Source: a virus
DNA: 64,000 nt
Virus record (IMG/VR): IMGVR_UViG_3300035680_000866
Coordinates: 1-64,000 of that record
Direction: 5' to 3' (one strand)
The notes beneath the pieces are model-generated. The model was not told the origin of the DNA. It did not search any database and saw only the letters and a list, made by a program, of their open reading frames with translations. The translations under genes were made by a program, and so were the position numbers. This document shows positions 50-44,721 of this stretch, piece after piece. Positions within the stretch are counted from its first letter, which is position 1. Each line of letters begins with the position of its first letter.

Positions 50-124
50 TGGCCGGTCTTGAGAGGATCGAACTCCCACCCTCGGTTTCGAAGACCGAGA
101 TGATATCCATTTCACCAAAGACCG
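50..124 (-). tRNA. tRNA-Arg(TCG)
   Basis: Cloverleaf with T-loop TTCGATC, anticodon loop CTTCGAA (anticodon TCG), acceptor CGGTCTT/AAGACCG, discriminator G and encoded CCA. Confidence 0.9.
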
Positions 125-129
125 ATATG

Positions 130-204
130 TGGTACCGCCTACAGGAATCGAACCCATATTCGCAGGGTAGAAGCCTGCCGTATTATCCATTATACGAAAG
201 CGGT
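130..204 (-). tRNA. tRNA-Arg(TCT)
   Basis: T-loop TTCGATT, anticodon stem GCAGG/CCTGC with loop CTTCTAC (anticodon TCT), encoded CCA. One of at least four Arg isoacceptors in the array. Confidence 0.9.
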
Positions 205-205
205 G

Positions 206-295
206 TGGCAGTGAGTGAGAGATTCGAACTCTCGTGCCCCTTACGGAACCATCACCTTTCCAAGATGCGCCAATAGGCCTCTCTGGCAACTCACT
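206..295 (-). tRNA. tRNA-Ser(GGA)
   Basis: Class II tRNA with a long variable arm, T-loop TTCGAAT, anticodon loop TTGGAAA (anticodon GGA), serine-type discriminator G, encoded CCA. Confidence 0.9.
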
Positions 296-301
296 ATTGT
301 T

Positions 302-379
302 TGGTACCCCTGACCGGATTCGAACCGGTACTTGACAATGTTTAAGACTGTTGCCTGCTACCAATTGGGCTACAGGGGC
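302..379 (-). tRNA. tRNA with anticodon TAA (Leu codon UUA), class I shape
   Basis: Good cloverleaf: acceptor GCCCCTG/CAGGGGT, T-arm ACCGG-TTCGAAT-CCGGT, anticodon stem ACAGT/ATTGT with loop CTTAAAC. The anticodon reads TAA, a leucine anticodon, but the variable loop is only 5 nt whereas bacterial tRNA-Leu has a long arm. Amino-acid identity is therefore not certain. Confidence 0.8.
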
Positions 380-536
380 AAATAGGTTTTTGAGAGACCA
401 GCTATCTTTCTCAAGGACTCACTGGCTTGTCTCGTATGAAGGAGTTTAAACTACCTTGTGTTGCTACTGGTGTGTCAGTCTCAAGAATAGGGACCTAGCG
501 CACAAGGGACTCTACTTCAACGTCTATCTCAAAACT
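380..536 (-). other. 157-nt tRNA-array spacer bounded by an inverted repeat
   Basis: No tRNA and no convincing ORF. The spacer is bounded by the 8-bp inverted repeat ttttgaga/tctcaaaa (about 388-395 and 527-534), so a transcript across it could close into one stem-loop domain. It may be a stable RNA or just spacer. Confidence 0.35.
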
Positions 537-612
537 TGGCGTCCCATAGCGGATTCGAACCGCTGTAAATACCGTGAAAGGGTACTATCCTAGGCCTCTA
601 GATGAATGGGAC
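537..612 (-). tRNA. tRNA-Glu(TTC)
   Basis: T-arm AGCGG-TTCGAAT-CCGCT, anticodon loop CTTTCAC (TTC), discriminator G, encoded CCA, acceptor GTCCCAT/ATGGGAC. Confidence 0.9.
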
Positions 613-617
613 ATGTT

Positions 618-692
618 TGGTAGTAACGGTGAGATTCGAACTCACACCGGGCACCGTATGAAGGTGTTGCACAACCATTATGCTACGTTACC
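618..692 (-). tRNA. tRNA with anticodon CAT (Met or Ile2)
   Basis: Loop TTCATAC gives anticodon CAT; T-arm GTGAG-TTCGAAT-CTCAC, encoded CCA. The acceptor starts with a G1-U72 type pair and lacks initiator features. Elongator Met and lysidine-modified Ile cannot be separated by eye. Confidence 0.85.
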
Positions 693-701
693 ATATCAAA
701 A

Positions 702-775
702 CACACTAGCGGAATCGAACCGTTACGCCTCCTGCACTACGTGAGGAAGCGGATGCCCACACTAGTTCTAGTGAG
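702..775 (-). tRNA. degenerate tRNA or tRNA-like RNA
   Basis: A T-loop TTCGATT with a stem and acceptor-like strands (GCTCACT/AGTGTGT, one mismatch) is present. There is no encoded CCA, no regular D-arm and no standard anticodon loop; the middle instead forms CCTC/GAGG. It may be a decayed tRNA. Confidence 0.35.
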
Positions 776-783
776 CTTTGATA

Positions 784-861
784 TGGTAGGACTGTCCGGA
801 TTCGAACCGGAACCTGGCGGATTAAAAGTCCGCTGTGCTAAACCGTTGACACTACAATCCC
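784..861 (-). tRNA. tRNA-Lys(TTT)
   Basis: Anticodon stem GCGGA/TCCGC with loop CTTTTAA (TTT), T-loop TTCGAAT, acceptor GGGATTG/CAGTCCT, encoded CCA. Confidence 0.92.
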
Positions 862-866
862 ATATA

Positions 867-943
867 TGGTCCCTAGCGTCAGATTCGAACTGACACCTCA
901 TCGGTTAAGAGCCGAGTACGCTACCGTTAAACGCCAGCTAGGG
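867..943 (-). tRNA. tRNA-Lys(CTT)
   Basis: Loop CTCTTAA gives anticodon CTT; T-arm GTCAG-TTCGAAT-CTGAC, acceptor CCCTAGC/GCTAGGG, encoded CCA. It is the first mature tRNA downstream of the promoter at 1063-1091. Confidence 0.9.
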
Positions 944-1016
944 TTGTTGCATATTAAATTTGTCTTTAATGTGCCAACCCTAGACCATATACGGGATCTA
1001 AGATTGACACTATCGT

Positions 1017-1040
1017 TTACCTGAACGTTTCATGTCATTA
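1017..1040 (-). CDS. possible 7-codon leader ORF
   Basis: In the leader between the promoter at 1063-1091 and the first tRNA-Lys, a Shine-Dalgarno-like AGAGGT precedes ATG by a normal distance. It opens an ORF encoding only MKRSGKR. It could be a leader peptide or chance; nothing else supports it. Confidence 0.15.
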
Positions 1041-1062
1041 CCTCTTTTGTGTTTAAGTTTCT

Positions 1063-1091
1063 ATTATACAACCTTTTAGGGTAGTTGTCAA
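1063..1091 (-). promoter_or_regulatory. consensus sigma70 promoter for tRNA array
   Basis: Reads TTGACA, 17 nt, TATAAT on the minus strand, a perfect bacterial housekeeping promoter. Transcription would run into tRNA-Lys(CTT) and onward to the left edge. Confidence 0.85.
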
Positions 1092-1194
1092 CCGCATTGA
1101 ATTTGTAAGCTGTTGCGTCCCTCATATCGCAACCATTTTCCCTTGTAATAAAGCCGGCAGGGTCAAGATACGTCACTTGGGCTTTGTCCAGACG

Positions 1195-1314
1195 ATACTC
1201 CAACTGTATTCCGATCTTCCGATCGGACGGGGATCGAACCCGCTACCTTCTACTGTTTTGGTAGTTCGAACATACCTAGACAGCGTGACTCTACTTGCTG
1301 ACACTTACAAAACT
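1195..1314 (-). tRNA. tRNA-like fragment with T-arm and GNRA-type hairpin
   Basis: A clean T-arm (GCGGG-TTCGATC-CCCGT) is followed by the hairpin CCGATC-GGAA-GATCGG in place of an acceptor/CCA end. Upstream there is no matching 5' acceptor strand and no anticodon loop with U33. Not a normal tRNA. The 1092-1195 stretch next to it holds no recognisable gene. Confidence 0.3.
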
Positions 1315-1391
1315 TGGTGGACGATAGTGGAATCGAACCACTGTCACGGCAGGGTTGCTACCGCCTGTTATCCTTTACAACAGTCATCGCC
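1315..1391 (-). tRNA. tRNA with unusual anticodon loop (GCAACCC)
   Basis: Acceptor GGGCGAT/ATCGTCC, D-arm, T-arm AGTGG-TTCGATT-CCACT and CCA are all good. The only sound anticodon stem (CGGTA/TGCCG) leaves loop GCAACCC, with C instead of U at position 33 and a nominal anticodon AAC. Identity unresolved; possibly a decayed or repurposed tRNA. Confidence 0.5.
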
Positions 1392-1399
1392 CATTAACT

Positions 1400-1474
1400 T
1401 GGTGCCCACATATGGAATCGAACCACAATCCCCGGTTTCGTAGACCAGTGTATTATCCATTATACTATGCGGGC
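1400..1474 (-). tRNA. tRNA-Arg(ACG)
   Basis: Loop CTACGAA gives ACG, a substrate for A34-to-inosine editing in bacteria; T-loop TTCGATT, acceptor GCCCGCA/TGTGGGC, CCA encoded. Confidence 0.9.
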
Positions 1475-1483
1475 AAATAAAAC

Positions 1484-1541
1484 AGGATAGCATTTTTGGT
1501 TTCATTAACAGTGAAATTTTTGATTTTGCTGTTGCTATCCT
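1484..1541 (-). ncRNA. structured RNA element, copy 1 (AGGAT...CAGCAA...ATCCTG)
   Basis: Ends pair over 9 bp (AGGATAGCA with TGCTATCCT). CAGCAA begins 10 nt after the first A; an inner hairpin TTTCA/TGAAA sits between A-rich strands; the 3' flank is GTTTTA. Same design as the copies at 2547, 3854, 3999, 27533, 27581 and 27881. Confidence 0.65.
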
Positions 1542-1605
1542 AAAAATTTGTGCTGGGTAGGTGCTCCAGCGCCGATCGTCTTGATATTATCTCACGGCCC
1601 TTGTT
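1542..1605 (-). other. tRNA-array spacer without clear gene
   Basis: Contains one local hairpin (GCTGG/CCAGC) on the minus strand but no T-loop or ORF. Nothing further seen. Confidence 0.3.
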
Positions 1606-1681
1606 TGGTGCCACAAACTGGACTCGAACCAGTAACACACGAATTTTCAATCCGCTGCTCTACCATTGGAGCTATTGTGGC
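1606..1681 (-). tRNA. tRNA-Phe(GAA)
   Basis: Loop TTGAAAA (GAA), T-arm ACTGG-TTCGAGT-CCAGT, acceptor GCCACAA/TTGTGGC, CCA encoded. Confidence 0.9.
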
Positions 1682-1689
1682 AAAATGTT

Positions 1690-1764
1690 TGGTGGAGGCC
1701 GGGGGTATCGAACCCCTCTAGTCACGATGCTTGCAAGGCAACGCCGCAGCCCTCTGCTGCCCCC
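1690..1764 (-). tRNA. tRNA-Ala(TGC)
   Basis: Loop CTTGCAA (TGC), T-loop TTCGATA, CCA encoded. The last acceptor pair and one T-stem pair are mismatched. Confidence 0.85.
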
Positions 1765-1773
1765 AAATTGTAT

Positions 1774-1852
1774 TGGCTCCGTGTGTGAGGATCGAACTCA
1801 CCTAATCATTGATTAACAGTCAAGTCCTTGCACCATGCTTGGATTTCACGGA
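1774..1852 (-). tRNA. tRNA-Asn(GTT)
   Basis: Loop CTGTTAA (GTT), T-arm GTGAG-TTCGATC-CTCAC, discriminator G, CCA encoded. Confidence 0.9.
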
Positions 1853-1860
1853 ATAAATTT

Positions 1861-1935
1861 TGGCGATCCTGCGGGGAATCGAACCCCGATATCCGACTAG
1901 ACAGGCCGGTATAATAACCACTATATGACAGGACC
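1861..1935 (-). tRNA. tRNA-Asp(GTC)
   Basis: Anticodon stem CCGGC/GTCGG with loop CTGTCTA (GTC), discriminator G as in aspartate tRNAs, T-arm CGGGG-TTCGATT-CCCCG, CCA encoded. Confidence 0.9.
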
Positions 1936-1942
1936 ATTAACT

Positions 1943-2029
1943 TGGTGGAGACGACTGGAGTCGAACCAGTAGTGCCTTTCGGGCGGCGGATTTACAGTCC
2001 ACTGGGGTTACCAATTTTCCTACATCTCC
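1943..2029 (-). tRNA. tRNA-Tyr(GTA)
   Basis: Class II variable arm as in bacterial tRNA-Tyr, loop CTGTAAA (GTA), T-loop TTCGACT, acceptor GGAGATG/CGTCTCC, CCA encoded. Confidence 0.9.
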
Positions 2030-2035
2030 ATAACT

Positions 2036-2111
2036 TGGCGCCACAGACGGGAATCGAACCCGCCTAAATCGGATAGACAATCCGGTGCCCTACCCAGAGG
2101 ACTACTGTGGC
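2036..2111 (-). tRNA. tRNA-Asp(GTC), second copy
   Basis: Loop TTGTCTA (GTC), discriminator G, acceptor GCCACAG/CTGTGGC, CCA encoded. It differs from the Asp tRNA at 1861, so it is not a recent duplicate. Confidence 0.85.
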
Positions 2112-2215
2112 AAAACTAATAACACAAGCATAACATTAACCAGTTATGCCTGCCACTCTCATCCCTCGCTGGCAGGGAGACTGAATGCCATCCTACAGTG
2201 CGTTGAGTGTTGTTA
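2112..2215 (-). ncRNA. candidate multi-hairpin RNA in array spacer
   Basis: No T-loop, but the minus strand can form three consecutive hairpins (ACTG/CAGT, CTGCCA/TGGCAG, GCATAAC/GTTATGC) inside a closing AACAC/GTGTT stem, cloverleaf-like in outline. T4 carries stable RNAs of unknown function in its own tRNA cluster. Inference from pairing only. Confidence 0.3.
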
Positions 2216-2218
2216 ACT

Positions 2219-2295
2219 TGGTACTCCGTACGGGACTCGAACCCGTTTTTCCAACTTGAAAGGCTAGCGTCCTAAACCACGTAGACGAACGAAGT
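2219..2295 (-). tRNA. tRNA-Glu(TTC), second copy
   Basis: Loop CTTTCAA (TTC), T-arm ACGGG-TTCGAGT-CCCGT, acceptor ACTTCGT/ACGGAGT, CCA encoded. Discriminator is A, unlike the Glu tRNA at 537 (G). Confidence 0.85.
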
Positions 2296-2301
2296 AAAAT
2301 T

Positions 2302-2410
2302 CTTATACAACTACACACTCACAGGACTCGAACCTGCCAACTGGACTTCTCGTCCAGCTAGATACCACCTCTATCTGCTTGGCCTAAGCATTTGTGTGTA
2401 TGTGTATAAG
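2302..2410 (-). ncRNA. tRNA-like RNA with extended closing stem and extra hairpin
   Basis: A T-arm (GCAGG-TTCGAGT-CCTGT), a D-arm-like hairpin and an anticodon-position hairpin CTGGA-CGAGAAG-TCCAG (no U33) are present. The ends pair as TACACAC/GTGTGTA and continue into a second stem TTCTTATACA/TGTATAAGAA, so there is no free CCA end. An additional hairpin TGCTT/AAGCA precedes the D-arm. It is the first RNA after the promoter at 2472. A tRNA mimic is likelier than a tRNA. Confidence 0.5.
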
Positions 2411-2471
2411 AACTTCTTATACTGTAAATTTTTAAAGAACATTTACATCTAATTGCTTAGTGTATGTGTTA

Positions 2472-2500
2472 ATTATAGCAAGGTTTTACCTCCTTGTCAA
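2472..2500 (-). promoter_or_regulatory. consensus sigma70 promoter in tRNA array
   Basis: TTGACA, 17 nt, TATAAT on the minus strand. The transcript begins in the AT-rich leader before the tRNA-like RNA at 2302-2410. Confidence 0.85.
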
Positions 2501-2546
2501 TAGTCTTTGCAACTATTTTTGTTGTATTTTAACAACACTATTAAAC

Positions 2547-2607
2547 AGGATACTGTTTGCTTTTCACAGCCAAAAAGTGAAATATTTTGGTTTGCTGTAA
2601 GTATCCT
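2547..2607 (-). ncRNA. structured RNA element, copy 2
   Basis: Closing stem AGGATACT/AGTATCCT, CAGCAA at the same 10-nt offset as the other copies, inner hairpin TTTCAC/GTGAAA, and 3' flank GTTTAA. It lies just beyond the promoter at 2472, between that promoter and tRNA-Gly. Confidence 0.65.
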
Positions 2608-2611
2608 AAAC

Positions 2612-2685
2612 TGGTGCGGGGTAAGGGAATCGAACCCTTAACTACTGGGTGGAAGCCAGTGATCTTACCATTAAACGAACCACGC
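2612..2685 (-). tRNA. tRNA-Gly(TCC)
   Basis: Anticodon stem ACTGG/CCAGT with loop CTTCCAC (TCC), T-arm AAGGG-TTCGATT-CCCTT, CCA encoded; one acceptor mismatch. Confidence 0.88.
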
Positions 2686-2691
2686 ATAAAC

Positions 2692-2769
2692 TTGGCCCTC
2701 GAGGTGTATGTCGCAGTACACATTACTAACTATTGGCAAGGGTGTATACGGCCCCGCTTAACTCAAGGA
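2692..2769 (-). tRNA. degenerate tRNA
   Basis: Acceptor strands TCCTTGA/TCGAGGG pair fully with wobbles and a CCA is encoded. The T-arm is aberrant (stem GTGTA/TACAC, loop without TTC) and no anticodon loop with U33 is visible. Likely a decayed tRNA. Confidence 0.35.
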
Positions 2770-2775
2770 TAAAAT

Positions 2776-2851
2776 TGGTGCAACCTGTAGGGATCGAACC
2801 TACTTCAATGGCTCTTCAGACCACCGCTATGACCACATCAGCTAAAGTTGC
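2776..2851 (-). tRNA. tRNA-Phe(GAA), second copy
   Basis: Loop CTGAAGA (GAA, G37), T-arm GTAGG-TTCGATC-CCTAC, acceptor GCAACTT/AGGTTGC, CCA encoded. Sequence differs from the Phe tRNA at 1606. Confidence 0.8.
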
Positions 2852-2858
2852 ATTGTAT

Positions 2859-2934
2859 TGGTGCCCCAGTCCGGAATCGAACCGACTTCCCCTGCTTACA
2901 AGACAGGACCTCATCCATTAAAGGCTTCAAGGGC
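2859..2934 (-). tRNA. tRNA-Thr(TGT)
   Basis: Anticodon stem CCTGT/GCAGG with loop CTTGTAA (TGT), T-loop TTCGATT, CCA encoded. Confidence 0.9.
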
Positions 2935-2941
2935 AATAAAC

Positions 2942-3018
2942 TGGAACATCGGGTGGGACTCGAACCCACGACTGGACGGATTTGCAATCCGCTACATTGG
3001 CCGCTCTGTCACCGATGC
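2942..3018 (-). tRNA. tRNA-Cys(GCA)
   Basis: Loop TTGCAAA (GCA) with the cysteine-specific discriminator U73; T-arm GTGGG-TTCGAGT-CCCAC, acceptor GCATCGG/CCGATGT. Confidence 0.92.
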
Positions 3019-3024
3019 ATAAAC

Positions 3025-3103
3025 TGGTCTGTGTGGCAGGATTCGAACCTGCGACCTCCGACTTCCAAGGCCGGCCGTCTGACCTGACTGACATTACACA
3101 CAG
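3025..3103 (-). tRNA. tRNA-Pro(TGG)
   Basis: Anticodon arm CCGGC-CTTGGAA-GTCGG (TGG), T-arm GCAGG-TTCGAAT-CCTGC, acceptor CTGTGTG/CACACAG, CCA encoded. Confidence 0.92.
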
Positions 3104-3110
3104 ATAAAAT

Positions 3111-3185
3111 TGGTAGCCACGGACAATTTCGAAATGTCGACTCCCGCCTTATCAAGACGGTACTCTGCCTCTGAGTTACGTGGCC
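3111..3185 (-). tRNA. tRNA-Ile(GAT)
   Basis: Loop TTGATAA (GAT), T-arm GACAT-TTCGAAA-TTGTC, acceptor GGCCACG/CGTGGCT, CCA encoded. It ends 5 nt before the stop codon of the endonuclease gene. Confidence 0.9.
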
Positions 3186-3190
3186 ATAAA

Positions 3191-3592
3191 TTACCACTCT
3201 GCGTATTCTGTTATTATACGAGAGTTTTTATCTTTTCTTTTTGTTGATTCTACACATCGCAGTTTAACTTCTTTTACATCGCATATTTCTGCAATAGGAA
3301 CGAGATATACTTTATCTAATTCATTTACATAGACTGCAATATAATCGATGTTACTTTCATTGTAAGAAACTCTATTTGTAAATGTGTTTTGAGATAGTTT
3401 AATTGTAACTATTCCGTTACTTTCTAACGATCTAAACTTAACTTGAATTCGTAAAAGTTTACCGTCGTGTCTATCTAACACATAATCATAAGGACAACCT
3501 TGTGGCATTTTGCCAGTCCAATATCCTCTTTTGGCAGAAACGAGCACAAATGCTGCTTCTCCTATTTCACCTTTTTCGTTTGATATACTCAT
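3191..3592 (-). CDS. PD-(D/E)XK endonuclease, likely homing-type
   Basis: 133 aa. A GExGE element near the N-terminus is followed by PYDYVLD and, some 17 residues later, QVKF. Together these give the catalytic order E...D...(Q/E)xK of PD-(D/E)XK nucleases of the PF11645 type, whose best-known relative is the cyanobacterial tRNA-intron enzyme I-Ssp6803I. The gene sits inside the tRNA array, between a complete tRNA-Ile and a truncated tRNA-Gly-like sequence whose 3' end overlaps its ribosome-binding site. That position suits an enzyme that targets or spreads within tRNA genes. No intron is visible. Family call is from motifs. Confidence 0.7.
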   Translation of the reverse strand: MSISNEKGEIGEAAFVLVSAKRGYWTGKMPQGCPYDYVLDRHDGKLLRIQVKFRSLESNGIVTIKLSQNTFTNRVSYNESNIDYIAVYVNELDKVYLVPIAEICDVKEVKLRCVESTKRKDKNSRIITEYAEW

Positions 3593-3600
3593 AGTGTTCT

Positions 3601-3663
3601 CCTACAAGTATTTATAACGCTCGCCAGGAAAGCGATTGTTATACCATTTAACTACAAGAGGAA
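3601..3663 (-). pseudogene. truncated tRNA-Gly(TCC)-like sequence
   Basis: The minus strand gives acceptor-like TTCCTCT, a D-arm and an anticodon arm TCGC-TTTCCTG-GCGA (TCC), but no T-arm. The sequence runs instead into AGGAGAAC, the ribosome-binding site of the endonuclease gene. It looks like a tRNA whose 3' third was replaced by that gene. Confidence 0.5.
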
Positions 3664-3676
3664 TAAACTGCTTAGG

Positions 3677-3747
3677 GGTGACTAACGGGATTTGAACCCG
3701 TACTGACAAGGTCACAACATGTAGTGCTACCATTACACTATAGCCAC
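3677..3747 (-). tRNA. tRNA-His(GTG)
   Basis: Loop TTGTGAC (GTG) and the histidine-type discriminator C73; T-arm ACGGG-TTCAAAT-CCCGT, acceptor GTGGCTA/TAGTCAC. The terminal CCA is not fully encoded. Confidence 0.8.
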
Positions 3748-3770
3748 ACCTAAGAAGTCTAACAAAATAT

Positions 3771-3844
3771 TGGCACCCGGACTAGGGATCGAACCTAGGC
3801 TAACAGAGTCAAAGTCTGTTGTGCTACCATTACACAATCCGGGA
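3771..3844 (-). tRNA. tRNA-Gln(TTG)
   Basis: Anticodon arm ACAGA-CTTTGAC-TCTGT (TTG), T-arm CTAGG-TTCGATC-CCTAG, CCA encoded. Base pair 1-72 is a T-T mismatch. Confidence 0.88.
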
Positions 3845-3853
3845 ACAAAAAAC

Positions 3854-3908
3854 AGGATGCTTATTTTTCAATTAAAAGTTGAATTTTTTGATTTGCTGGA
3901 CGCATCCT
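3854..3908 (-). ncRNA. structured RNA element, copy 3
   Basis: Closing stem AGGATGC/GCATCCT, CAGCAA at 10 nt, inner hairpin TTCAA/TTGAA, 3' flank GTTTTT. Sits between tRNA-Gln and tRNA-Trp. Confidence 0.65.
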
Positions 3909-3913
3909 AAAAC

Positions 3914-3988
3914 TGGCATACCCCCTTGGATTTGAACCAAGCCTAACGGTTTTGGAGACCGGCGTGCTGCCGCTGACACTAGGGATAC
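3914..3988 (-). tRNA. tRNA-Trp(CCA)
   Basis: Loop CTCCAAA (CCA) with tryptophan-type discriminator G, T-arm CTTGG-TTCAAAT-CCAAG, acceptor GTATCCC/GGGGTAT, CCA end encoded. Confidence 0.9.
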
Positions 3989-3998
3989 ATAATAAAAC

Positions 3999-4058
3999 AG
4001 GATCAACTTTGGTTTTTTTGAATAATAAAAAAGTTTTTAAGTTTGCTGAACTGATCCT
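3999..4058 (-). ncRNA. structured RNA element, copy 4
   Basis: Closing stem AGGATCA/TGATCCT, CAGCAA at 10 nt, A/T-rich interior, 3' flank GTTTTA. Sits between tRNA-Trp and the oversized tRNA-like gene. Confidence 0.6.
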
Positions 4059-4063
4059 AAAAC

Positions 4064-4179
4064 TGGTACGACCGGTAGGTCTCGAACCTACAAGAGCACG
4101 GTAACTATGTTATGTGCCCCTTCCCCTGACCTATGCTATGAGCATAACGGGAGGTCTGCCATATTCCACTTACGGTCGC
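4064..4179 (-). tRNA. oversized tRNA with giant variable arm
   Basis: Acceptor GCGACCG/CGGTCGT, T-arm GTAGG-TTCGAGA-CCTAC and CCA are regular, but the gene is about 113 nt without CCA. A hairpin with loop CTCATAG would give anticodon CAT. A further 8-bp stem (AGGGGCAC/GTGCTCTT) with an inner TAAC/GTTA hairpin occupies the variable region. GACCT/AGGTC could close a longer anticodon arm with an insertion. Identity and function uncertain. Confidence 0.45.
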
Positions 4180-4187
4180 ATAATGTA

Positions 4188-4216
4188 ATTATACAATCTT
4201 ATGTAGAATTTGTCAA
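4188..4216 (-). promoter_or_regulatory. consensus sigma70 promoter in tRNA array
   Basis: TTGACA, 17 nt, TATAAT on the minus strand, directly upstream of the oversized tRNA. Confidence 0.85.
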
Positions 4217-4222
4217 TTGTCT

Positions 4223-4314
4223 TGGCGGAAAGCAGAGGAGTCGAACCCCATCCCATTTCTGAGAACCCAGTTTTCAAGGCTGGTCGCAGGACCAACCCCG
4301 CTGCATTACTTTCC
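4223..4314 (-). tRNA. tRNA-Ser(TGA)
   Basis: Class II with long variable arm, loop CTTGAAA (TGA), discriminator G, acceptor GGAAAGT/GCTTTCC, CCA encoded. Confidence 0.9.
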
Positions 4315-4323
4315 ATTTAAACT

Positions 4324-4399
4324 TGGTCTCGCATGAAGGACTCGAACCTTCGAAATCCTGGCCCCAAACCAGGTGGCATAGCCGCTAACCGAATGCGAG
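4324..4399 (-). tRNA. tRNA-Pro(TGG), second copy
   Basis: Anticodon arm CCTGG-TTTGGGG-CCAGG (TGG), T-arm GAAGG-TTCGAGT-CCTTC, acceptor CTCGCAT/ATGCGAG, CCA encoded. Confidence 0.85.
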
Positions 4400-26121: not shown

Positions 26122-27519
26122 TTACGCTATTACAGCGTAACGTGGAGCGTTGATTGTAGCCAACATTACATTGACTGGATCCAACGATTCGGCGCTTAGG
26201 ATGCTCTTCATGATAGCAGGGCTGAATCCGCTAACAAGGGCAACACCCTTCTTGTCATGCTTAACTGGAACGTTGCCAGCACGAGCATTCAAGTTCCAGA
26301 ATACAATGTTGGGAACAGTGTATCCTGCCGCTTCATACTTACGAGCGATCATTTCCATTGCCGAGTCGTCGTGACGAGCACAGTAATTGAATTCCATATC
26401 ACTCATGATAAGGATATACTTTGGCATATCCTTTGCATCAACATTGCCCTTGACTGCGAAGTCAAGCACAGTGTTAAATGCGGCGTGTAGATTAGTACTC
26501 ATGTCCCATTCTGCACGTTGTAGTTGAGCCAACTTGCTCAACAGGTTACCCTTCAAGATTTCGATCTTGCTCTTGGTAGAGAAGGTCAAAAACATGTCCT
26601 TGAATGGACCAGTGTTCTTGTCAGCAAGGTACAAGCCCAAACTAACGCAAACATCCATACAGGTCAAGTTAGCGTTTCCGCCAACTGGAGAGCTCATAGA
26701 GCCAGACACGTCACACATTGGCAACACCAGTTCATCACCGATGTAGTTTGGCAATGCATCCCATTGTGCTTGCACAACAGTGGCGTCACCACCAAACTTG
26801 TGGCTCTTGATAACGTCATATGGGTAAACAGCCGAAGCGTTAACCTTTGCGTCACCAGTAACCAACTTTGCCTTGTAAGCATCATAGCCTACAGGGTCGT
26901 GCTTCTTAAAAGCCTTTTGGTATCGAGCAGCCGCCAACGATGGTACGTGGCTATAGTTGATGTCATCCCAAGTGTTTGCACACATGTTCTGTTCAACTGT
27001 CTTGCTCAAGTTAACCAAACTCTTACGGTAGAACTTTGGGCTCATTCCGAAGAAGGTGCGGATTTCAGCAGCCAACGCACCTTGACGTGGCATCCACTTT
27101 GCGGCCAGCCCGTTGCTTGCACGTAGCGCATCACCGATTAGGGTAAATGCTTGTGCCTTCACTTCCTTAGAAGTAAAGATCAACAGGTCGTCCCAACGAC
27201 CGAATTCAGCCAGGTGTGGCAAAATACGGGCAAGCGCCTTAGGGTTGGTCTTTTCAAGATTCAAAAGAATCTTACGAACAACTTCACGTTCGCCTGCACC
27301 ACCACGGACGTCACGAGCCCACATCAAAAGACGTAGAGCAAGAGTTTCGTCTTGTGCTAGTGCGCGAGCAAACTGAGTGCTCAAATCCTTACCACGGCTT
27401 GCACCAATGGCAAAGAACAAATCTACAAGATCACTCTTGCTAGATTCAAAAGTCTTCATACCGTTTGCGGTACGAGATTCAACTGGAACGGACTTAACCG
27501 CTTCTACAAATGCGTTCAT
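26122..27519 (-). CDS. TROVE/DUF2828-like protein with vWA domain
   Basis: 465 aa. The N-terminal helical-repeat half includes RLLMWARDVRGGAGER and HLAEFGRWDDLLIF, the signature of DUF2828/TROVE (Ro60-related RNA-binding) proteins. The C-terminal half is a von Willebrand A domain with MIDAS motif DVSGSMSS at D270 and a later ILIMSDMEF. Ro proteins bind structured Y RNAs and misfolded RNA. The 5' leader carries one RNA element and two more lie just upstream, followed by an AAA+ ATPase gene as in AAA-vWA pairs. RNA binding is inferred. Confidence 0.75.
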   Translation of the reverse strand: MNAFVEAVKSVPVESRTANGMKTFESSKSDLVDLFFAIGASRGKDLSTQFARALAQDETLALRLLMWARDVRGGAGEREVVRKILLNLEKTNPKALARILPHLAEFGRWDDLLIFTSKEVKAQAFTLIGDALRASNGLAAKWMPRQGALAAEIRTFFGMSPKFYRKSLVNLSKTVEQNMCANTWDDINYSHVPSLAAARYQKAFKKHDPVGYDAYKAKLVTGDAKVNASAVYPYDVIKSHKFGGDATVVQAQWDALPNYIGDELVLPMCDVSGSMSSPVGGNANLTCMDVCVSLGLYLADKNTGPFKDMFLTFSTKSKIEILKGNLLSKLAQLQRAEWDMSTNLHAAFNTVLDFAVKGNVDAKDMPKYILIMSDMEFNYCARHDDSAMEMIARKYEAAGYTVPNIVFWNLNARAGNVPVKHDKKGVALVSGFSPAIMKSILSAESLDPVNVMLATINAPRYAVIA

Positions 27520-27532
27520 TTTATTTTCCTTC

Positions 27533-27572
27533 AGGTTACTTTTAAATTAAAAAATTTTGCTGTATATAACCT
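27533..27572 (-). ncRNA. structured RNA element, copy 7, in leader of TROVE-vWA gene
   Basis: AGGTTA pairs with TAACCT; CAGCAA begins exactly 10 nt in. The 3' strand CCTG abuts the ribosome-binding site GAAGGA of the vWA gene at 27519. Likely a cis-regulatory site, possibly bound by the encoded protein. Confidence 0.55.
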
Positions 27573-27580
27573 ATACAAGC

Positions 27581-27817
27581 AGGATGGGTGTGCCAATTTG
27601 TTTATTTTCTGGTCTGGCCAATTATAGCACCCAGACCCTATCGACAATTCATGTTGACTATCTAAACTTGTGTCTGCGTTAGAAACATACAAAGTCTTTC
27701 CCTTGTGTCATCCATTCCTTGAGTGTCTAGTTTCCTAGAACAGTATCTCCACTGTGTCCTACAACCACTTTCTATGGCATTTAACTTTAGTATTGTTTTA
27801 ATTGCTGAATCCATCCT
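27581..27817 (-). ncRNA. long structured RNA, element copy 6
   Basis: Ends AGGATGG/CCATCCT pair; CAGCAA at the 10-nt offset. It has its own promoter (27825-27853), whose predicted start is at the 5' stem. A 50-codon ORF (27662-27814) runs inside but has poor initiation context and atypical composition. A second TATAAT (27621-27626), with a poor -35, lies within and may serve the vWA mRNA. Confidence 0.55.
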
Positions 27818-27824
27818 AGGATCA

Positions 27825-27853
27825 ATTATAGCACACGTTCGTCTGAGGTTCAA
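27825..27853 (-). promoter_or_regulatory. sigma70-like promoter for RNA copy 6
   Basis: TTGAAC, 17 nt, TATAAT on the minus strand; predicted start lies within a few bases of the AGGATGG stem. Confidence 0.65.
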
Positions 27854-27880
27854 TTCAGTTGTAGTGCTATAAAATAAAAC

Positions 27881-28043
27881 AGGTTAGTTGTCGGCTGCTT
27901 TTATTCAACTCAGGCCACCACTCTGAGCTCGCTAGTCTATTTCAATGTTGACTCTTCAACGCACTCGGTCAAGACTCTGTGCTCCAATTCAACACCATAG
28001 GGTCTAGCAGTCCATATTAAATGAAAATTGCTGCACCTAACCT
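27881..28043 (-). ncRNA. long structured RNA, element copy 5
   Basis: Ends AGGTTAG/CTAACCT pair, CAGCAA at the 10-nt offset, 3' flank CCTGTTTTATTTT as in the tRNA-array copies. The interior of about 110 nt carries further hairpins (such as CTCAG/CTGAG) and no ORF. Transcribed from the perfect promoter at 28080-28108. Confidence 0.6.
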
Positions 28044-28079
28044 AAAACTTCTTTTAACAAGTTTCCTTGCTATATATCT

Positions 28080-28108
28080 ATTATAGTGTCATATAATTAT
28101 CTTGTCAA
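28080..28108 (-). promoter_or_regulatory. consensus sigma70 promoter for RNA copy 5
   Basis: TTGACA, 17 nt, TATAAT on the minus strand, pointing into a region without protein gene until 27519. Confidence 0.85.
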
Positions 28109-28146
28109 CAAAAATATGCACTATAATAGCCAAAATCTAGATGATT

Positions 28147-29253
28147 TTAAAATGCATCCATGTAGTTGTAGTACTTTTCTTTAATGCGGTTCAGTGTCAC
28201 ACGGTCACCGTCCTCGTTAATGAAAACAAACTTACCAGCAGTTGCATCAATCTGCTTGAGATCTTCTTGACCAAATCGAGCATCTTCCCAATTCCAGTCT
28301 GTTTCAATAGAAGCCAGACCGTCGAGTGCTGGCTCAGCACTCTTTGCATCTTCAAAGACCTTGTAGTCAATGCTGACACGATTGGTCAGTGGATTGCCTG
28401 TCCAGACTTCTTGCTCAATCAACTCCGGATTAATGTCTAGGCCTTTGATCTGCAGGGCAACCTTGTACTTGCTGTCACCACCGAACTCTGGCTTGGCGTT
28501 GAGCATACGCATAGCTTCGCTGGCAGTTTCTTTGTATCGATTCATTTCTTCAACCAATGCCTTCAGCATGTCAAAGTTGAACTGATCAAACATTGCCGCA
28601 ACTCGGCATACACTGGCGATATGATCAACATTGTCCAGATTGTCTGCACAGTACTCCATAATGAAGTCTTGTTCCAGACCTTTGAAGTCCAGTGAGTAGA
28701 AGATACGACCAGGACGGTTTCGCATGTGGCTGTCAATGCGCCACTTGTCGTTACAGGTTAGAATGAACAGCTTCTTGGAGGGATATACACCGTCCAATAG
28801 TGTCAGCATCTTTTCCTGGTCATCCTTGTCGTAGACCTTTTCAAACTCGTCAAATAGGATCACTGTGGGTTGCTCAATCATCTGCATGAAGCTGTTAAAG
28901 CCTTCACCGCACCATGGCTCGTTGATAACAATTGTTGGCACCGCCGCTTCTGCGGCAGTGACTGCCAACAGTTTGGCTAACAGTGTCTTGCCCGAACCTT
29001 TTTCACCAGTAAGCATTACACCAGTGGATGCAGTACGGTCATTGAAAGTATTGAGAATACGTTGGCTCTGCTTGCGAGTATCTCCGTATACCTTGCCGCG
29101 GATCTCGAAGCTTTCGATCGCTTCAAGATAGAAACAGCCAGCCATCTTGTCAAATTTAACAGTGTAGTTGCCAACAGGCAGTTGCTCATGTAGATCCATT
29201 GCTTCCTTAGTGGAAACATTAAATCGTGTACCAGATTTCAAAAAATATGTCAT
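28147..29253 (-). CDS. AAA+ ATPase
   Basis: 368 aa. Walker A GEKGSGKT (83-90), Walker B VILFDEFEK (131-139), sensor 1 region LFILTCNDKW, and RNRPGRIFYSLDF with candidate Arg finger. Upstream of the two RNAs and the vWA protein on the same strand. AAA+/vWA gene pairs (MoxR, RavA-ViaA) act as remodelling machines, so this is the likely partner of the TROVE-vWA protein. Confidence 0.85.
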   Translation of the reverse strand: MTYFLKSGTRFNVSTKEAMDLHEQLPVGNYTVKFDKMAGCFYLEAIESFEIRGKVYGDTRKQSQRILNTFNDRTASTGVMLTGEKGSGKTLLAKLLAVTAAEAAVPTIVINEPWCGEGFNSFMQMIEQPTVILFDEFEKVYDKDDQEKMLTLLDGVYPSKKLFILTCNDKWRIDSHMRNRPGRIFYSLDFKGLEQDFIMEYCADNLDNVDHIASVCRVAAMFDQFNFDMLKALVEEMNRYKETASEAMRMLNAKPEFGGDSKYKVALQIKGLDINPELIEQEVWTGNPLTNRVSIDYKVFEDAKSAEPALDGLASIETDWNWEDARFGQEDLKQIDATAGKFVFINEDGDRVTLNRIKEKYYNYMDAF

Positions 29254-29330: not shown

Positions 29331-30725
29331 TTATTTGCGAGCGTTAGCTCGAACTTCTTCGAACGAAATCTCGTTGTAAAGTTTGCCGTTCTCGAATACC
29401 TTCTGTAGAGAAGACTTCCACTCGAGTCCTCGATCAGTCCAACCTTTTGGTTGTTCTACGGAGGATTGATATTCTCCGCCGGACTCCCACAGTTCGACTC
29501 GGCCTTTCTTGCTTTTCTTACCTGGATCAGTGACAGGATCTTTCTGGACATCTACCCAGGTTCCGTTGATACAGGCTGCACTTGCTTTTAGGGCAAACTT
29601 CTGCGTGTCACGATCTACAATCTGCAACAGGGCACCGCCCATACCAAAAGCAATGTTATCGGCACTCCAACCCATGGCCATGAACGCACCAAGGATACTG
29701 CGAACAGTGAGTTCGTTGATGCCGTCACCTTGGATCAGACGCACATTGTTCAGTACCTTGAATCCTTTAGCGTTAACTGTGTAGCCAAACTTCTCGCCCA
29801 GGATTTCAACTAGACGACGGTTGACTTCGACAGGATCGCCACTATCAGGCCTAATGACAACAGTAGCACCACTATCGATAACCTGTTGGCGAAGTTCTTC
29901 GCCCCAGAGCTTAGAGGCTGCGTTGTAGATATCATAACTATCACTGACAACAGCGAGGATAGTACCGGGACGAGCGAACTGGGTAAGCATATTTCTGTAA
30001 GCATCTACTTCCCCGTCACGACCCCAACTGGTGATTGTACTATGCTCTGCGGCTGGGATTGAGAAACCAGCAATACCAGCATTGTAATATTCACGAGCAA
30101 ACAGAACACCAGTAATAGTGTCAGTTCCCATAAAGTTGACCAAGTGCGCGGCACTGCCAATGCCAGCACTTTCAAGGCTAGATACGCCACGAGCACCAAA
30201 GTCGTGCAACTTAAAATCGATAGTAGTAGGATCACCAGTTCTCTCCAAGAAGTCAAGAATGACTTGTTTAATTGTGTATGATTGTGTTGCCACAGTAGTA
30301 CCATACCACACTGCACGAAGCAGGGCAGTTTCCAACCAAGTGGTCAACCAGAAGCATTCTGGATCTGTGTTTTCAATTGTCGCAAGTACATTTTTGACGG
30401 GGACCACAGTTCCTTCTGGCACGGCCCGAATGACAACTGGGAGGTATCCACGGTGCTTGTCCAGTATGTATTGCCATCCTGCTCGGTTGAAAGGCTCACC
30501 GTGTAGGGTAAGGATTTCTTCAGCGATGTCAATGTCTGCTTGGGTGATGGGTTCGAGAAGGTACTCTTTGATAAAAGCCTGTAATCCGAAGAATACTGTT
30601 CTATCGTACCGCCCGCCTCTAGACTCGATATATGAATATACACCTGTAGTACCTGCTGGGTATTGTTTGAACATGCTGACTTTGTAGCTGTCAGTGTTCA
30701 AAATAAGATTTTTTGCGAGTTTCAT
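29331..30725 (-). CDS. nampt: nicotinamide phosphoribosyltransferase
   Basis: 464 aa, full length for NAMPT/NadV. LNTDSYKVSMFKQYPAGT at the N-terminus, DFGARGVSSLESAGIGSAAHLVNF, SIPAAEHSTITSWGRDGE, VVIRPDSGDP (PRPP site) and GMGGALLQ are family hallmarks. It makes NMN from nicotinamide and PRPP. The adjacent NMN adenylyltransferase completes NAD+ synthesis, a route phages use to rebuild NAD+ depleted by host defences. Confidence 0.93.
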   Translation of the reverse strand: MKLAKNLILNTDSYKVSMFKQYPAGTTGVYSYIESRGGRYDRTVFFGLQAFIKEYLLEPITQADIDIAEEILTLHGEPFNRAGWQYILDKHRGYLPVVIRAVPEGTVVPVKNVLATIENTDPECFWLTTWLETALLRAVWYGTTVATQSYTIKQVILDFLERTGDPTTIDFKLHDFGARGVSSLESAGIGSAAHLVNFMGTDTITGVLFAREYYNAGIAGFSIPAAEHSTITSWGRDGEVDAYRNMLTQFARPGTILAVVSDSYDIYNAASKLWGEELRQQVIDSGATVVIRPDSGDPVEVNRRLVEILGEKFGYTVNAKGFKVLNNVRLIQGDGINELTVRSILGAFMAMGWSADNIAFGMGGALLQIVDRDTQKFALKASAACINGTWVDVQKDPVTDPGKKSKKGRVELWESGGEYQSSVEQPKGWTDRGLEWKSSLQKVFENGKLYNEISFEEVRANARK

Positions 30726-31766: not shown

Positions 31767-32786
31767 TTATGCTCCTACAAAATGTGAGATGATTTCAAAA
31801 TGGTCTTCAAAGCATTCTTCGCTTCGAACCTCTGCAATAGGTACCCAACGTGCTTTCTCAGCATCGTCACTGCCTTTTACTTTTGGCAACTCACCGTCTG
31901 GCAGTTGGATGTGAAACGCATGTGTAATTATACGTCCTCTAGGACTTCTGTCAACCGCATCAAATACCTTACTGCGAACAATCGATCCACGCAACACCGG
32001 AGCAGGCACTTTAATCATAGTTTCTTCACGCAGTTCACGGATAGCCGCATCTTCAACTGACTTGTCGGTATTGGCGTTGACGTAGCCGCCTGGCAGTGCC
32101 CACAAGCCCTTGCCGGGCTCTGCACGGCGTTTGATCATCAGCACATGACCTGAACAGATCACAACACTATCAGCAGTGCTGAAGATTGGAGGATATGGCA
32201 ATGACGCATACTGTTTCTTATAGTTTGCAACAAACTCTCGCTCACGGATAATTTGTTCATATTCGGCATGGTGGCGGAATTCATCCAAGAACTCAAACAC
32301 AGTTTCTGGCACAACACCTTTAATGAACTTCATGTTGACATCACGCTTGAAGTAAAGATCACGAATGTCAACAGCACTAAGGAACTCAATCAGTTCCACG
32401 TTTTCATATCCCCATTGTGGGAACATGTCCAGATAGAAGCTACTGTCGTCTTTCTTGTGTCCAATAATACCAGTCTTGGTACCAAGGACTGCATACTTGC
32501 TGACAATGCCTTGGATACGCACTGCCCAGGCTTGATCGTTATAGATAGTGTCTACATTGGGTTCAATGTAGATTTGCATATTCAATCCACGGGTAGCCGA
32601 TTTGATCATGCCCGCACGTTCTGCACTTGTGAACGGATTCTTGTAAGTACGGGGTTGTGCGGCAGAACCAGTGATAATTACTAACTGTTCGCATAGGGCA
32701 GTGGCACGTTTTACAATCTCAAGGTGAGCACTGTGAAATGGTTGAAAGCGCCCAATGAGCACTAGGGTGTGATATTTTTTAGTCAT
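31767..32786 (-). CDS. nadM: bifunctional NMN adenylyltransferase/Nudix hydrolase
   Basis: 339 aa. The N-terminal nucleotidyltransferase has GRFQPFHSAH (the HxGH motif is HSAH), FTSAERAGMI and a later ISxx-like NPFTSAERAG region. The C-terminal Nudix domain (about 200-330) has the box GGYVNANTDKSVEDAAIRELREET. It converts NMN to NAD+ and probably hydrolyses ADP-ribose. With NAMPT this is a two-step NAD+ reconstitution pathway (the NARP2 type). Confidence 0.9.
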   Translation of the reverse strand: MTKKYHTLVLIGRFQPFHSAHLEIVKRATALCEQLVIITGSAAQPRTYKNPFTSAERAGMIKSATRGLNMQIYIEPNVDTIYNDQAWAVRIQGIVSKYAVLGTKTGIIGHKKDDSSFYLDMFPQWGYENVELIEFLSAVDIRDLYFKRDVNMKFIKGVVPETVFEFLDEFRHHAEYEQIIREREFVANYKKQYASLPYPPIFSTADSVVICSGHVLMIKRRAEPGKGLWALPGGYVNANTDKSVEDAAIRELREETMIKVPAPVLRGSIVRSKVFDAVDRSPRGRIITHAFHIQLPDGELPKVKGSDDAEKARWVPIAEVRSEECFEDHFEIISHFVGA

Positions 32787-44295: not shown

Positions 44296-44485
44296 CTGCT
44301 ATTTTGGGTGACAAGGTATAACTACCTCGTGGAGATCACGCTGCTAGGCGGTCTTCTCCAAAGTATGCATCGTTTGCATTTAGGTTTTTTGCTTCTGCGA
44401 CCGGGTCACCCCAATCCTAACGGCTTCTACATTGCCGGACTGTCCATTTCAATACTCTTGACCCAATCGATCCTGTGTCAGGCCC

Positions 44486-44549
44486 ATTATAAAACATACT
44501 CACCCGAATGGACATTGTCACCTCCGCCTACTGTCGGAAATATGTTTTA
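44486..44549 (-). other. intervening segment of permuted tmRNA
   Basis: The 10-bp inverted repeat ATAAAACATA/TATGTTTTAT brings the CCA end and the 5' acceptor strand together. The segment is expected to be removed by host RNases to give two RNA pieces. Confidence 0.8.
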
Positions 44550-44721
44550 TGGTGGACCTGGCGGGCACTGCCCCCGCGTCTTGAATCCTTTTCTGTCTAC
44601 TTCATACAGTCTTAACTTTTAACAGACTTCCCAGGGTGTGTTTGGCCTCTGCTAAGCCTGCAGGAATCTCACCTACTGCATATCTGCTACGCAAACTTGC
44701 CCCTGCGAAAGTCTATTATTT

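What the first reader, a model, noticed from the sequence alone, without database searches (positions are those of the whole stretch)
27533..28108. Seven-copy RNA element linking a Ro60-like vWA protein, an AAA+ ATPase and the tRNA array
Seen: at 1484, 2547, 3854, 3999, 27533, 27581 and 27881 (minus strand) the sequence AGG[A/T]T, five variable bases, then CAGCAA occurs with identical spacing. Each copy ends with the complementary A[T/A]CCT followed by G, giving a closing stem whose variable bases co-vary (AGGATAGCA/TGCTATCCT, AGGATGC/GCATCCT, AGGTTAG/CTAACCT and so on). Four copies sit between tRNA genes; three lie directly upstream of the TROVE/DUF2828-vWA gene, one of them in its leader next to the ribosome-binding site. 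Two of the three have longer interiors (163 and 237 nt) and their own promoters. Known: Ro60/Rsr proteins bind Y RNAs whose ends pair, and bacterial Y RNAs can contain tRNA-like parts. Inference: the elements are ligands of the TROVE-vWA protein, with the AAA+ ATPase as remodeller, possibly an RNA quality-control or tRNA-handling system.
Basis: partly seen in the sequence, partly recalled or inferred. Interest (0 to 1): 0.93.

Follow-up and report, generated by a model that had tools for sequence, protein, structure and literature searches.

The report
Phage Y-like RNAs with tRNA mimics
Many large bacterial viruses appear to carry a family of small RNAs, a good part of them shaped like pieces of transfer RNA, that share one docking motif and occur together with a gene for a Ro60-like RNA-binding protein; this points to an RNA-protein machine of infection that has hardly been studied.

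Summary
In detail: seven copies, fixed spacing, closing stems. They belong to an RNA family found with a phage gene whose predicted fold is Ro60's (Z 18.4; DUF2828/DUF7788). In 39 distinct regions upstream of that gene, 75 of 83 CAGCAA sites close with a >=7-bp stem starting 10 nt before, against 12 of 616 for the other permutations. A model of the mini elements finds them in 15 of 17 cultured phages examined that have the gene and in 0 of 6 without. Interiors are interchangeable: anticodon-arm-like hairpins, permuted tRNA elbows as in YrlA, acceptor-less tRNAs, and larger folds near the gene. 92 of 152 mini elements lie within 20 nt of a tRNA gene, all on its strand.

Best reading: Y-type RNAs that dock on a phage Ro60-like protein by paired ends plus CAGCAA and display tRNA mimics; a copy in the gene's leader suggests feedback. 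Binding and function are inferred. The AAA+ gene is not a conserved neighbour.

Unexpected: Dictyostelium class I RNAs share this layout; their Rfam model ranks copies 1-4 first in this record, below its cut-off.

The parts
1483..1541 (-). mini element E1 (59 nt with final G), ahead of tRNA-Arg; can form an anticodon-arm-like hairpin TTTCA-CTGTTAA-TGAAA, though the minimum-energy fold differs
   Evidence: (R1 56.9 bits)
2546..2607 (-). mini element E2, between tRNA-Gly and tRNA-Thr
   Evidence: 57.7 bits
3853..3908 (-). mini element E3, between tRNA-Trp and tRNA-Gln; can form TTCAA-CTTTTAA-TTGAA (loop like anticodon UUU)
   Evidence: (54.4 bits)
3998..4058 (-). mini element E4, ahead of tRNA-Trp
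   Evidence: 55.5 bits
27880..28043 (-). large element E7 (163 nt plus G), first of the three ahead of the Ro60-like gene
27580..27817 (-). large element E6 (237 nt plus G) with internal covarying helices in its class
27532..27572 (-). leader element E5 (40 nt plus G) directly before AAGGA (27527-27531) and the ATG at 27519 of the Ro60-like gene
   Evidence: 32.7 bits
28080..28108 (-). promoter TTGACA-N17-TATAAT ahead of E7, recurring in 16 of 72 related loci
26122..27519 (-). Ro60-like protein gene: helical N-terminal part (DUF2828) and vWA (DUF7788) with DVSGS; PHROG phrog_850 'RNA-binding protein'
50..4399 (-). tRNA array (25 ARAGORN calls in the window) holding E1-E4

Best explanation
These are genes for phage Y-type RNAs. 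The two ends of each RNA pair (typically 7 bp) and leave CAGCAA unpaired ten bases from the 5' end; that end is the docking site of the phage's Ro60-like protein. The inside is an exchangeable display module. Shown by sequence: the family, the stem, the fixed motif and spacing, the co-occurrence with the Ro60-like gene, and tRNA-mimic modules of three kinds (anticodon-arm-like hairpin; permuted T-arm/acceptor/D-arm as in YrlA; D-arm + anticodon arm + T-arm without acceptor stem). Inferred: mini elements are transcribed with the tRNA array and cut out with it; E7 and E6 come from a leader transcript ahead of the gene; the protein binds all of them, and binding to E5 next to the start codon lowers its own translation; the particle offers tRNA-like bait, most likely so that host nucleases that attack tRNA anticodon loops are titrated or damaged tRNAs are handled during infection. 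Step odds: one structured RNA family tied to this gene 0.95; bound by the protein 0.8; tRNA mimicry as the functional point of the tRNA-like members 0.7; decoy against anticodon nucleases in particular 0.4.
For: CAGCAA/stem link without picking sites by stem: 75 of 83 sites upstream of the gene versus 12 of 616 (39 deduplicated regions), only at offset 10 (0-5 of 83 at offsets 6-9 and 11-14); best-stem histogram peaks at exactly 7 bp (68 of 83). Cultured phages: 26 of 248 versus 201 of 9,938, p 4e-11. 65 of 72 loci with >=400 nt upstream hold an element within 650 nt of the gene (the loci are the best 80 of 345 found); 6 of 6 loci from bacterial genome bins. Contigs found by a protein-blind pattern: gene present in 51 of 93 with a >=7-bp stem, 1 of 27 with a shorter one; 21 of 24 versus 0 of 4 at >=60 kb. 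Cultured: 15 of 17, of which 7 of 9 not used to build the model nor close to one used; 0 of 6 controls (125, 126). Fold: Ro60 entries fill the ten best rows, Z 18.4 to 12.3, next row 10.2. Mimics: 5-bp/7-nt hairpins in 35 of 74 mini elements versus 11.5 in dinucleotide shuffles (largest 20 of 200 runs); anticodon-like loops 17 versus 0.89 (largest 5); T-arms in 36 of 53 mid-sized elements versus 0.38; 4 of 4 acceptor-less tRNAs folded show an anticodon arm and a T-arm; YrlA consensus matches the Whirlwind module. 92 of 152 mini elements within 20 nt of a tRNA, all on its strand, 6-7 nt after one and 10-11 nt before the next. Leader copies end <=30 nt before ATG in 17 of 72.
Against: No binding, transcription or function data for any of these RNAs. 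Lowest-energy folds of E1 and E3 do not contain the anticodon-like hairpin (-14.0 versus -5.6 and -10.0 versus -8.8 kcal/mol), and 2 of 3 MS02 minis tested also fold otherwise. Only 17 of 74 mini elements have the strict anticodon-like loop; E2 and E4 do not. 11 of 43 element-bearing contigs of >=30 kb lack the gene (3 of 24 at >=60 kb), though fragments can miss it. Two cultured phages with the gene, Lak-C1 and PG-2021_14, give no hit. In SP116, GAP32, ValKK3, Munch, EniLVp02 and the Erwinia phage the elements are in tRNA regions and not upstream of the gene. Co-occurrence is confounded by lineage and by tRNA-rich large genomes. The Rfam YrlA and class I models stay below their cut-offs.
Confidence: 0.75

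Rival explanations
1. The mini elements are processing or folding spacers of the tRNA array (for example guides for RNase cuts between tRNAs) and have nothing to do with the Ro60-like protein.
For: 92 of 152 mini elements lie within 20 nt of a tRNA, with regular gaps, on its strand; in several phages they occur only in tRNA regions.
Against: The same ends, motif and spacing close large RNAs outside tRNA arrays directly upstream of the gene (65 of 72 loci) and in Listeria, Campylobacter, Staphylococcus and mycobacteriophage loci flank the gene itself; six tRNA-bearing or large control phages lack both gene and elements.
Confidence: 0.1
2. Decoy RNAs for host anticodon nucleases or tRNA-modifying enzymes that act by themselves; the Ro60-like protein only stabilises or exports them, or is a bystander.
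For: Anticodon-like loops 17 of 74 versus 0.89 in shuffles, 14 of the 17 with U at position 36 (UUU and UGU five each); acceptor-less tRNAs; PMC7790460 (passages) suggests that the YrlA tRNA-like domain could be a competitive inhibitor of an anticodon nuclease.
Against: Most mini elements lack the strict loop; the common constant part is the end, not the mimic.
Confidence: 0.2
3. Cis-acting regulatory elements: binding sites that let the protein control its own and neighbouring transcripts.
For: E5 lies against the ribosome-binding site; 17 of 72 loci have such a leader copy.
Against: Copies among tRNA genes have no open reading frame to control; large interiors with their own covarying helices exceed a binding site.
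Confidence: 0.08
4. A dispersed mobile repeat with inverted ends.
For: Inverted ends and T-rich flanks are shared.
Against: Ends vary and covary between lineages, interiors are unrelated to each other, copies keep strand, spacing and place.
Confidence: 0.02

Closest known systems
Ro60/Rsr and bacterial Y RNAs (YrlA, Rfam RF02553); mycobacteriophage Y RNAs of Chen et al. 2014 (paper not held; known here only through PMC12282133's citation and recall)
   Same: Ends pair, gene next to a Ro60-like gene, and a permuted tRNA elbow in the mid-sized class that aligns with the YrlA consensus.
   Different: The stem motif differs: the YrlA consensus printed has no CAGCAA; no element reaches the YrlA cut-off; the 50-70-nt mini class, the anticodon-arm class, the acceptor-less tRNA class, placement inside tRNA arrays and the leader copy are not part of the YrlA model.
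Dictyostelium class I RNAs (Rfam RF01414; PMC7919456, passages and section 15 read)
   Same: About 60 nt, short stem of paired ends with compensatory changes, conserved 11-nt motif next to the 5' stem with C6, C9, A10, A11 (and T3) constant, 3' CUGU end; consensus CUUACAGCAA at the same distance from the 5' end.
   Different: Eukaryotic, promoter DUSE, bound by the RRM protein Rnp1A; the paper reports none outside Dictyostelia; phage elements score below the Rfam cut-off (best 33.1 of 41.5).
Rsr-like protein and putative Y RNAs of Listeria phage CKA15 (PMC12282133, passages and section 8 read)
   Same: Same protein family (33.9% identity); the authors propose that three highly transcribed regions could be Y RNAs. 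Three elements of this family lie 73-340 nt upstream of CKA15_055.
   Different: The one region they give coordinates for (26,236-26,727) corresponds in A511 to a ROOL-like RNA (RF03087, 87.5 bits, cut-off 99.1), not to this family. Whether the other two regions are these elements I could not tell.
Ro60 of Thermus phage phiLo (PDB 9kop, 9l5y; titles only)
   Same: Phage protein with the same fold (Z 17.7 and 16.1).
   Different: About 16% identity in the structural alignment; its RNAs were not examined here.

Membership tests
Ro60/TROVE proteins | ring of helical repeats plus vWA, Ro60 fold | tested here: met
   AlphaFold model mean pLDDT 76.8; Foldseek best hit 9kop E 1.3e-8; VIA-align Z 18.4 to 1yvp over 386 residues, rmsd 4.4
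Ro60/TROVE proteins | match to the Pfam TROVE model | tested here: not met
   only DUF2828 and DUF7788 at E<=0.001, in 19 of 19 relatives. I therefore call it Ro60-like, not a TROVE-family member
Ro60/TROVE proteins | MIDAS-type DxSxS in the vWA part | tested here: met
   D270, S272, S274 invariant in 19 sequences
Ro60/TROVE proteins | binds Y RNA | not testable with these tools
   needs binding assay or CLIP
Y RNA (general) | 5' and 3' ends form a stem | tested here: met
Y RNA (general) | encoded with a Ro60-type gene | tested here: met
Y RNA (general) | bound by Ro60 | not testable with these tools
YrlA (RF02553) | permuted tRNA-like module | tested here: met
   for the 81-145-nt class only: Whirlwind element aligns, 38.3 bits; T-arm in 36 of 53
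YrlA (RF02553) | score over the Rfam cut-off, YrlA stem sequence | tested here: not met
   0 of 4 phage records over the cut-off; so not filed as YrlA
Dictyostelium class I RNA (RF01414) | stem + 11-nt motif + CUGU end, about 60 nt | tested here: met
   consensus and layout; criteria from PMC7919456
Dictyostelium class I RNA (RF01414) | score over the Rfam cut-off | tested here: not met
   best 33.1 bits versus 41.5; so not filed as class I RNA
tRNA | recognised as a tRNA gene | tested here: not met
   2 of 292 distinct elements overlap an ARAGORN call; none of the window's copies is an Rfam tRNA hit

The most novel reading that the evidence does not exclude
CAGCAA on a short end-pairing stem is an ancient Ro60-type docking module shared by phages and Dictyostelid amoebae. 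Dictyostelium class I RNAs, whose function and main partner have been open, would then be Y RNAs of a Ro60/DUF2828-type protein, and phages would have turned the same module into a kit that displays every part of a tRNA (anticodon arm, elbow, whole acceptor-less body) on a Ro60 particle to shield translation from host tRNA-cutting defences.
Probability: 0.25. Interest if true: 0.95.

Novelty: new variant of a known kind. Interest (0 to 1): 0.85.

Why it matters
It gives a sequence rule (end stem, CAGCAA ten bases in) that finds Y-type RNAs in phages of very different hosts, including model phages that can be grown today, where annotations I saw list only an 'RNA-binding protein'. It shows tRNA mimicry beyond the YrlA elbow: anticodon arms and acceptor-less tRNAs mounted on the same stem. 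It makes two open questions testable: what phage Ro60-like proteins bind, and whether Dictyostelium class I RNAs are ligands of a Ro60-type protein. I found no paper joining class I RNAs with Y RNA, Ro60 or TROVE in one search, none on DUF2828 in phages, and none describing phage mini Y RNAs with anticodon arms; subscription papers are mostly not held, so this is weak evidence of novelty.

Tried and rejected
AAA+ ATPase as partner: rejected, 2 of 55 loci. Rfam at gathering level: no element matched, only tRNAs and a tmRNA; at E<=10 on 27400-28200 only chance-looking hits. Promoter inside the 237-nt copy: rejected. Gene sequence search of PDB chains with profile A1: nothing significant, TROVE chains at E 1.2; the fold comparison decided it. 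My first reading of CAGCAA as invariant was by construction, since scans required it; MS02 has a CCGCAA copy, and (7 of 7 pairs with changes on both sides, covariation score 0.804 versus 0.174 shuffled) used elements already chosen for a >=7-bp stem, so carry that point. Hexamer test per phage included overlapping S13 loci; removes duplicates. Consensus fold of the 163-nt class gives only the end stem (2 of 7 pairs with changes on both sides); the 237-nt class gives 20 pairs, 10 with changes on both sides. L107, counted as chance-like, does hold a real 114-nt element. RF01414: 3 of 25 chance-like records also ring at E<=0.01 against 23 of 25 element-bearing, 0 of 14 control genomes; at E<=10, 8 of 14 control genomes ring. 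Search of GAP32, ValKK3, Erwinia, Munch and EniLVp02 near the gene gave nothing below E 0.01 until whole records were searched.

Full report
Observation. The pattern AGGWTN5CAGCAA occurs seven times in the window, all on the minus strand, against 0.09 expected, and nowhere else in the 98.6-kb virus record. Each copy closes with a complementary arm followed by G. Four lie in a tRNA array, three ahead of a gene for a DUF2828/DUF7788 protein.

The protein. All 19 aligned relatives match DUF2828 and DUF7788; PHROG calls the family 'RNA-binding protein'. The AlphaFold model (mean pLDDT 76.8) has TROVE structure 9kop as its best Foldseek hit (E 1.3e-8). VIA-align puts Ro60 entries in the ten best rows, from 1yvp (Z 18.4, 386 residues, rmsd 4.4) down to D. 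radiodurans Rsr 2nvo (Z 12.3); the next, unrelated vWA, has 10.2. DxSxS is invariant. Pfam's TROVE model does not match, so I say Ro60-like. In the phage collection 681 records hold a homologue, among them mycobacteriophage genes annotated 'Ro-like RNA binding protein' (60 of 681 rows seen).

The RNA family. Of the best 80 of 345 viral loci with the gene, 72 have at least 400 nt upstream and 65 of these hold an element within 650 nt. To avoid choosing sites by their stem, I took every CAGCAA and every other permutation of its letters in 39 deduplicated upstream regions: 75 of 83 CAGCAA sites close with a stem of at least 7 bp that begins ten bases before, against 12 of 616; shifting the start to 6-9 or 11-14 gives 0-5 of 83. 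The longest stem peaks at exactly 7 bp (68 of 83). In cultured phages the same test gives 26 of 248 against 201 of 9,938. Stem bases differ between lineages (AGGAT, AGACC, AGGAA, AGAGA, TGGAC, AAGAC) and all seven pairs show changes on both sides, in a set chosen for pairing.

Co-occurrence. The gene is in 51 of 93 and 1 of 27; at >=60 kb in 21 of 24 and 0 of 4. Eleven element-bearing contigs of 30 kb or more lack it. Six of six loci with the gene in bacterial genome bins carry elements. Model R1 finds elements at E<=0.01 in 15 of 17 cultured phages with the gene that I chose for spread; seven of these gave rows to the model and cka15 is close to one of them; of the nine others seven are positive, Lak-C1 and PG-2021_14 negative. 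T4, SPO1, phiKZ, P-SSM2, phage G and RB43 have neither gene nor element. In the five phages where nothing lay near the gene, the 19 R1 matches in the fetched stretches are on the strand of, and among, tRNA genes; three of these stretches had been fetched because R1 hits lay there, so only the tRNA neighbourhood is new information.

Interiors. Among 292 distinct elements 152 are up to 80 nt, 69 are 81-145 and 71 longer. Mini elements: 5-bp hairpins with 7-nt loops in 35 of 74 deduplicated, against 11.5 in dinucleotide shuffles (largest of 200: 20), other loop sizes near expectation except 9; anticodon-like loops (Y-U-NNN-A-) 17 against 0.89 (largest 5), anticodons UGU 5, UUU 5, GAU 2 and five singles, 14 of 17 with U at position 36. 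That U36-A37 marks tRNAs that carry t6A, and that UUU is the PrrC target, are recalled. Mid-sized elements: T-arms in 36 of 53 against 0.38; many have T-arm, acceptor loop and D-arm in permuted order as in the YrlA consensus. Four elements of 98-101 nt carry D-arm-like, anticodon and T-arm hairpins in normal order on the closing stem, without acceptor stem; all four fold so by energy alone, and one (L200) is called tRNA-Met by ARAGORN. The large classes ahead of the gene (E7, E6) are conserved; the E6 class has internal covarying helices (20 pairs, 10 with changes on both sides), the E7 class shows only its end stem. Against the mimic reading: by energy E1 and E3 prefer other folds.

Place. 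92 of 152 mini elements lie within 20 nt of a tRNA gene, all 92 on its strand, 53 with tRNAs on both sides, 6-7 nt after one and 10-11 nt before the next; 37 of 69 mid-sized; 3 of 71 large. This is the spacing of a further unit in the array, which suggests that they are cut out with the tRNAs (inference). E7, E6 and the gene follow a promoter that recurs in 16 of 72 loci. In 17 of 72 a copy ends within 30 nt of the start codon, as E5 does, which suggests feedback (inference).

Comparison with known kinds. Rfam YrlA rings weakly and never over its cut-off. Unexpectedly the Rfam model of Dictyostelium class I RNAs (consensus CUUACAGCAA beside a closing stem, 3' CUG) ranks E3, E2, E4 and E1 first in the whole record (E 7e-5, 7e-5, 0.0014, 0.83), and rings at E<=0.01 in 23 of 25 element-bearing records, 3 of 25 chance-like ones and 0 of 14 control genomes, never over its cut-off. 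PMC7919456 (passages, section 15) describes class I RNAs by just these features and reports none outside Dictyostelia, having searched one bacterium and several eukaryotes. Common descent or convergence on one kind of binding site cannot be told apart here.

Listeria phage CKA15. PMC12282133 (passages, section 8) reports three highly transcribed non-coding regions less than 2 kb upstream of an Rsr-like gene and suggests Y RNAs. Three elements of this family lie there, 22 nt behind a TTGACA..TATCAT site. But the most transcribed region given, 26,236-26,727, matches the place of a ROOL-like RNA in the near relative A511. Coordinates of the others are not in the text I saw.

Mechanism and odds are in Best explanation. 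Literature: PMC7824862 and PMC7765460 (passages) mention Ro60/TROVE proteins in jumbo phages, PMC7790460 (passages) the Rsr-Y RNA-RtcB operon and the decoy idea for YrlA. The original Y RNA papers are not held.

Noticed in passing
window 44336-44611 (-): Permuted tmRNA in a phage genome (Rfam RF04321, 101.9 bits).
   Followed up: no
window 29331-30725 and 31767-32786 (-): NAMPT-like and cytidylyltransferase-NUDIX genes beside the locus, which together look like a phage NAD salvage pathway (pathway reading recalled).
   Followed up: no
L212:2507-3058: ROOL-like RNA in Listeria phage A511 (87.5 bits, just under cut-off) at the place of the most transcribed, unexplained region of relative CKA15.
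   Followed up: partly
L171 (G004:30205-32564) and L193 (G026:114278-116805): Ro60-like gene split in two pieces about 1 kb apart, as if interrupted.
   Followed up: no
L026:8342-8486: Polynucleobacter-1 RNA (RF01718, 83.2 bits, over cut-off) downstream of a Ro60-like gene.
   Followed up: no
L209, L257, L212: RNA ligase gene next to or near the Ro60-like gene in phages GAP32 and Munch, and a 'tRNA splicing ligase' near it in A511, recalling the bacterial Rsr-RtcB operon.
   Followed up: no
window 3191-3592 (-): PD-(D/E)XK endonuclease gene inside the tRNA array.
   Followed up: no
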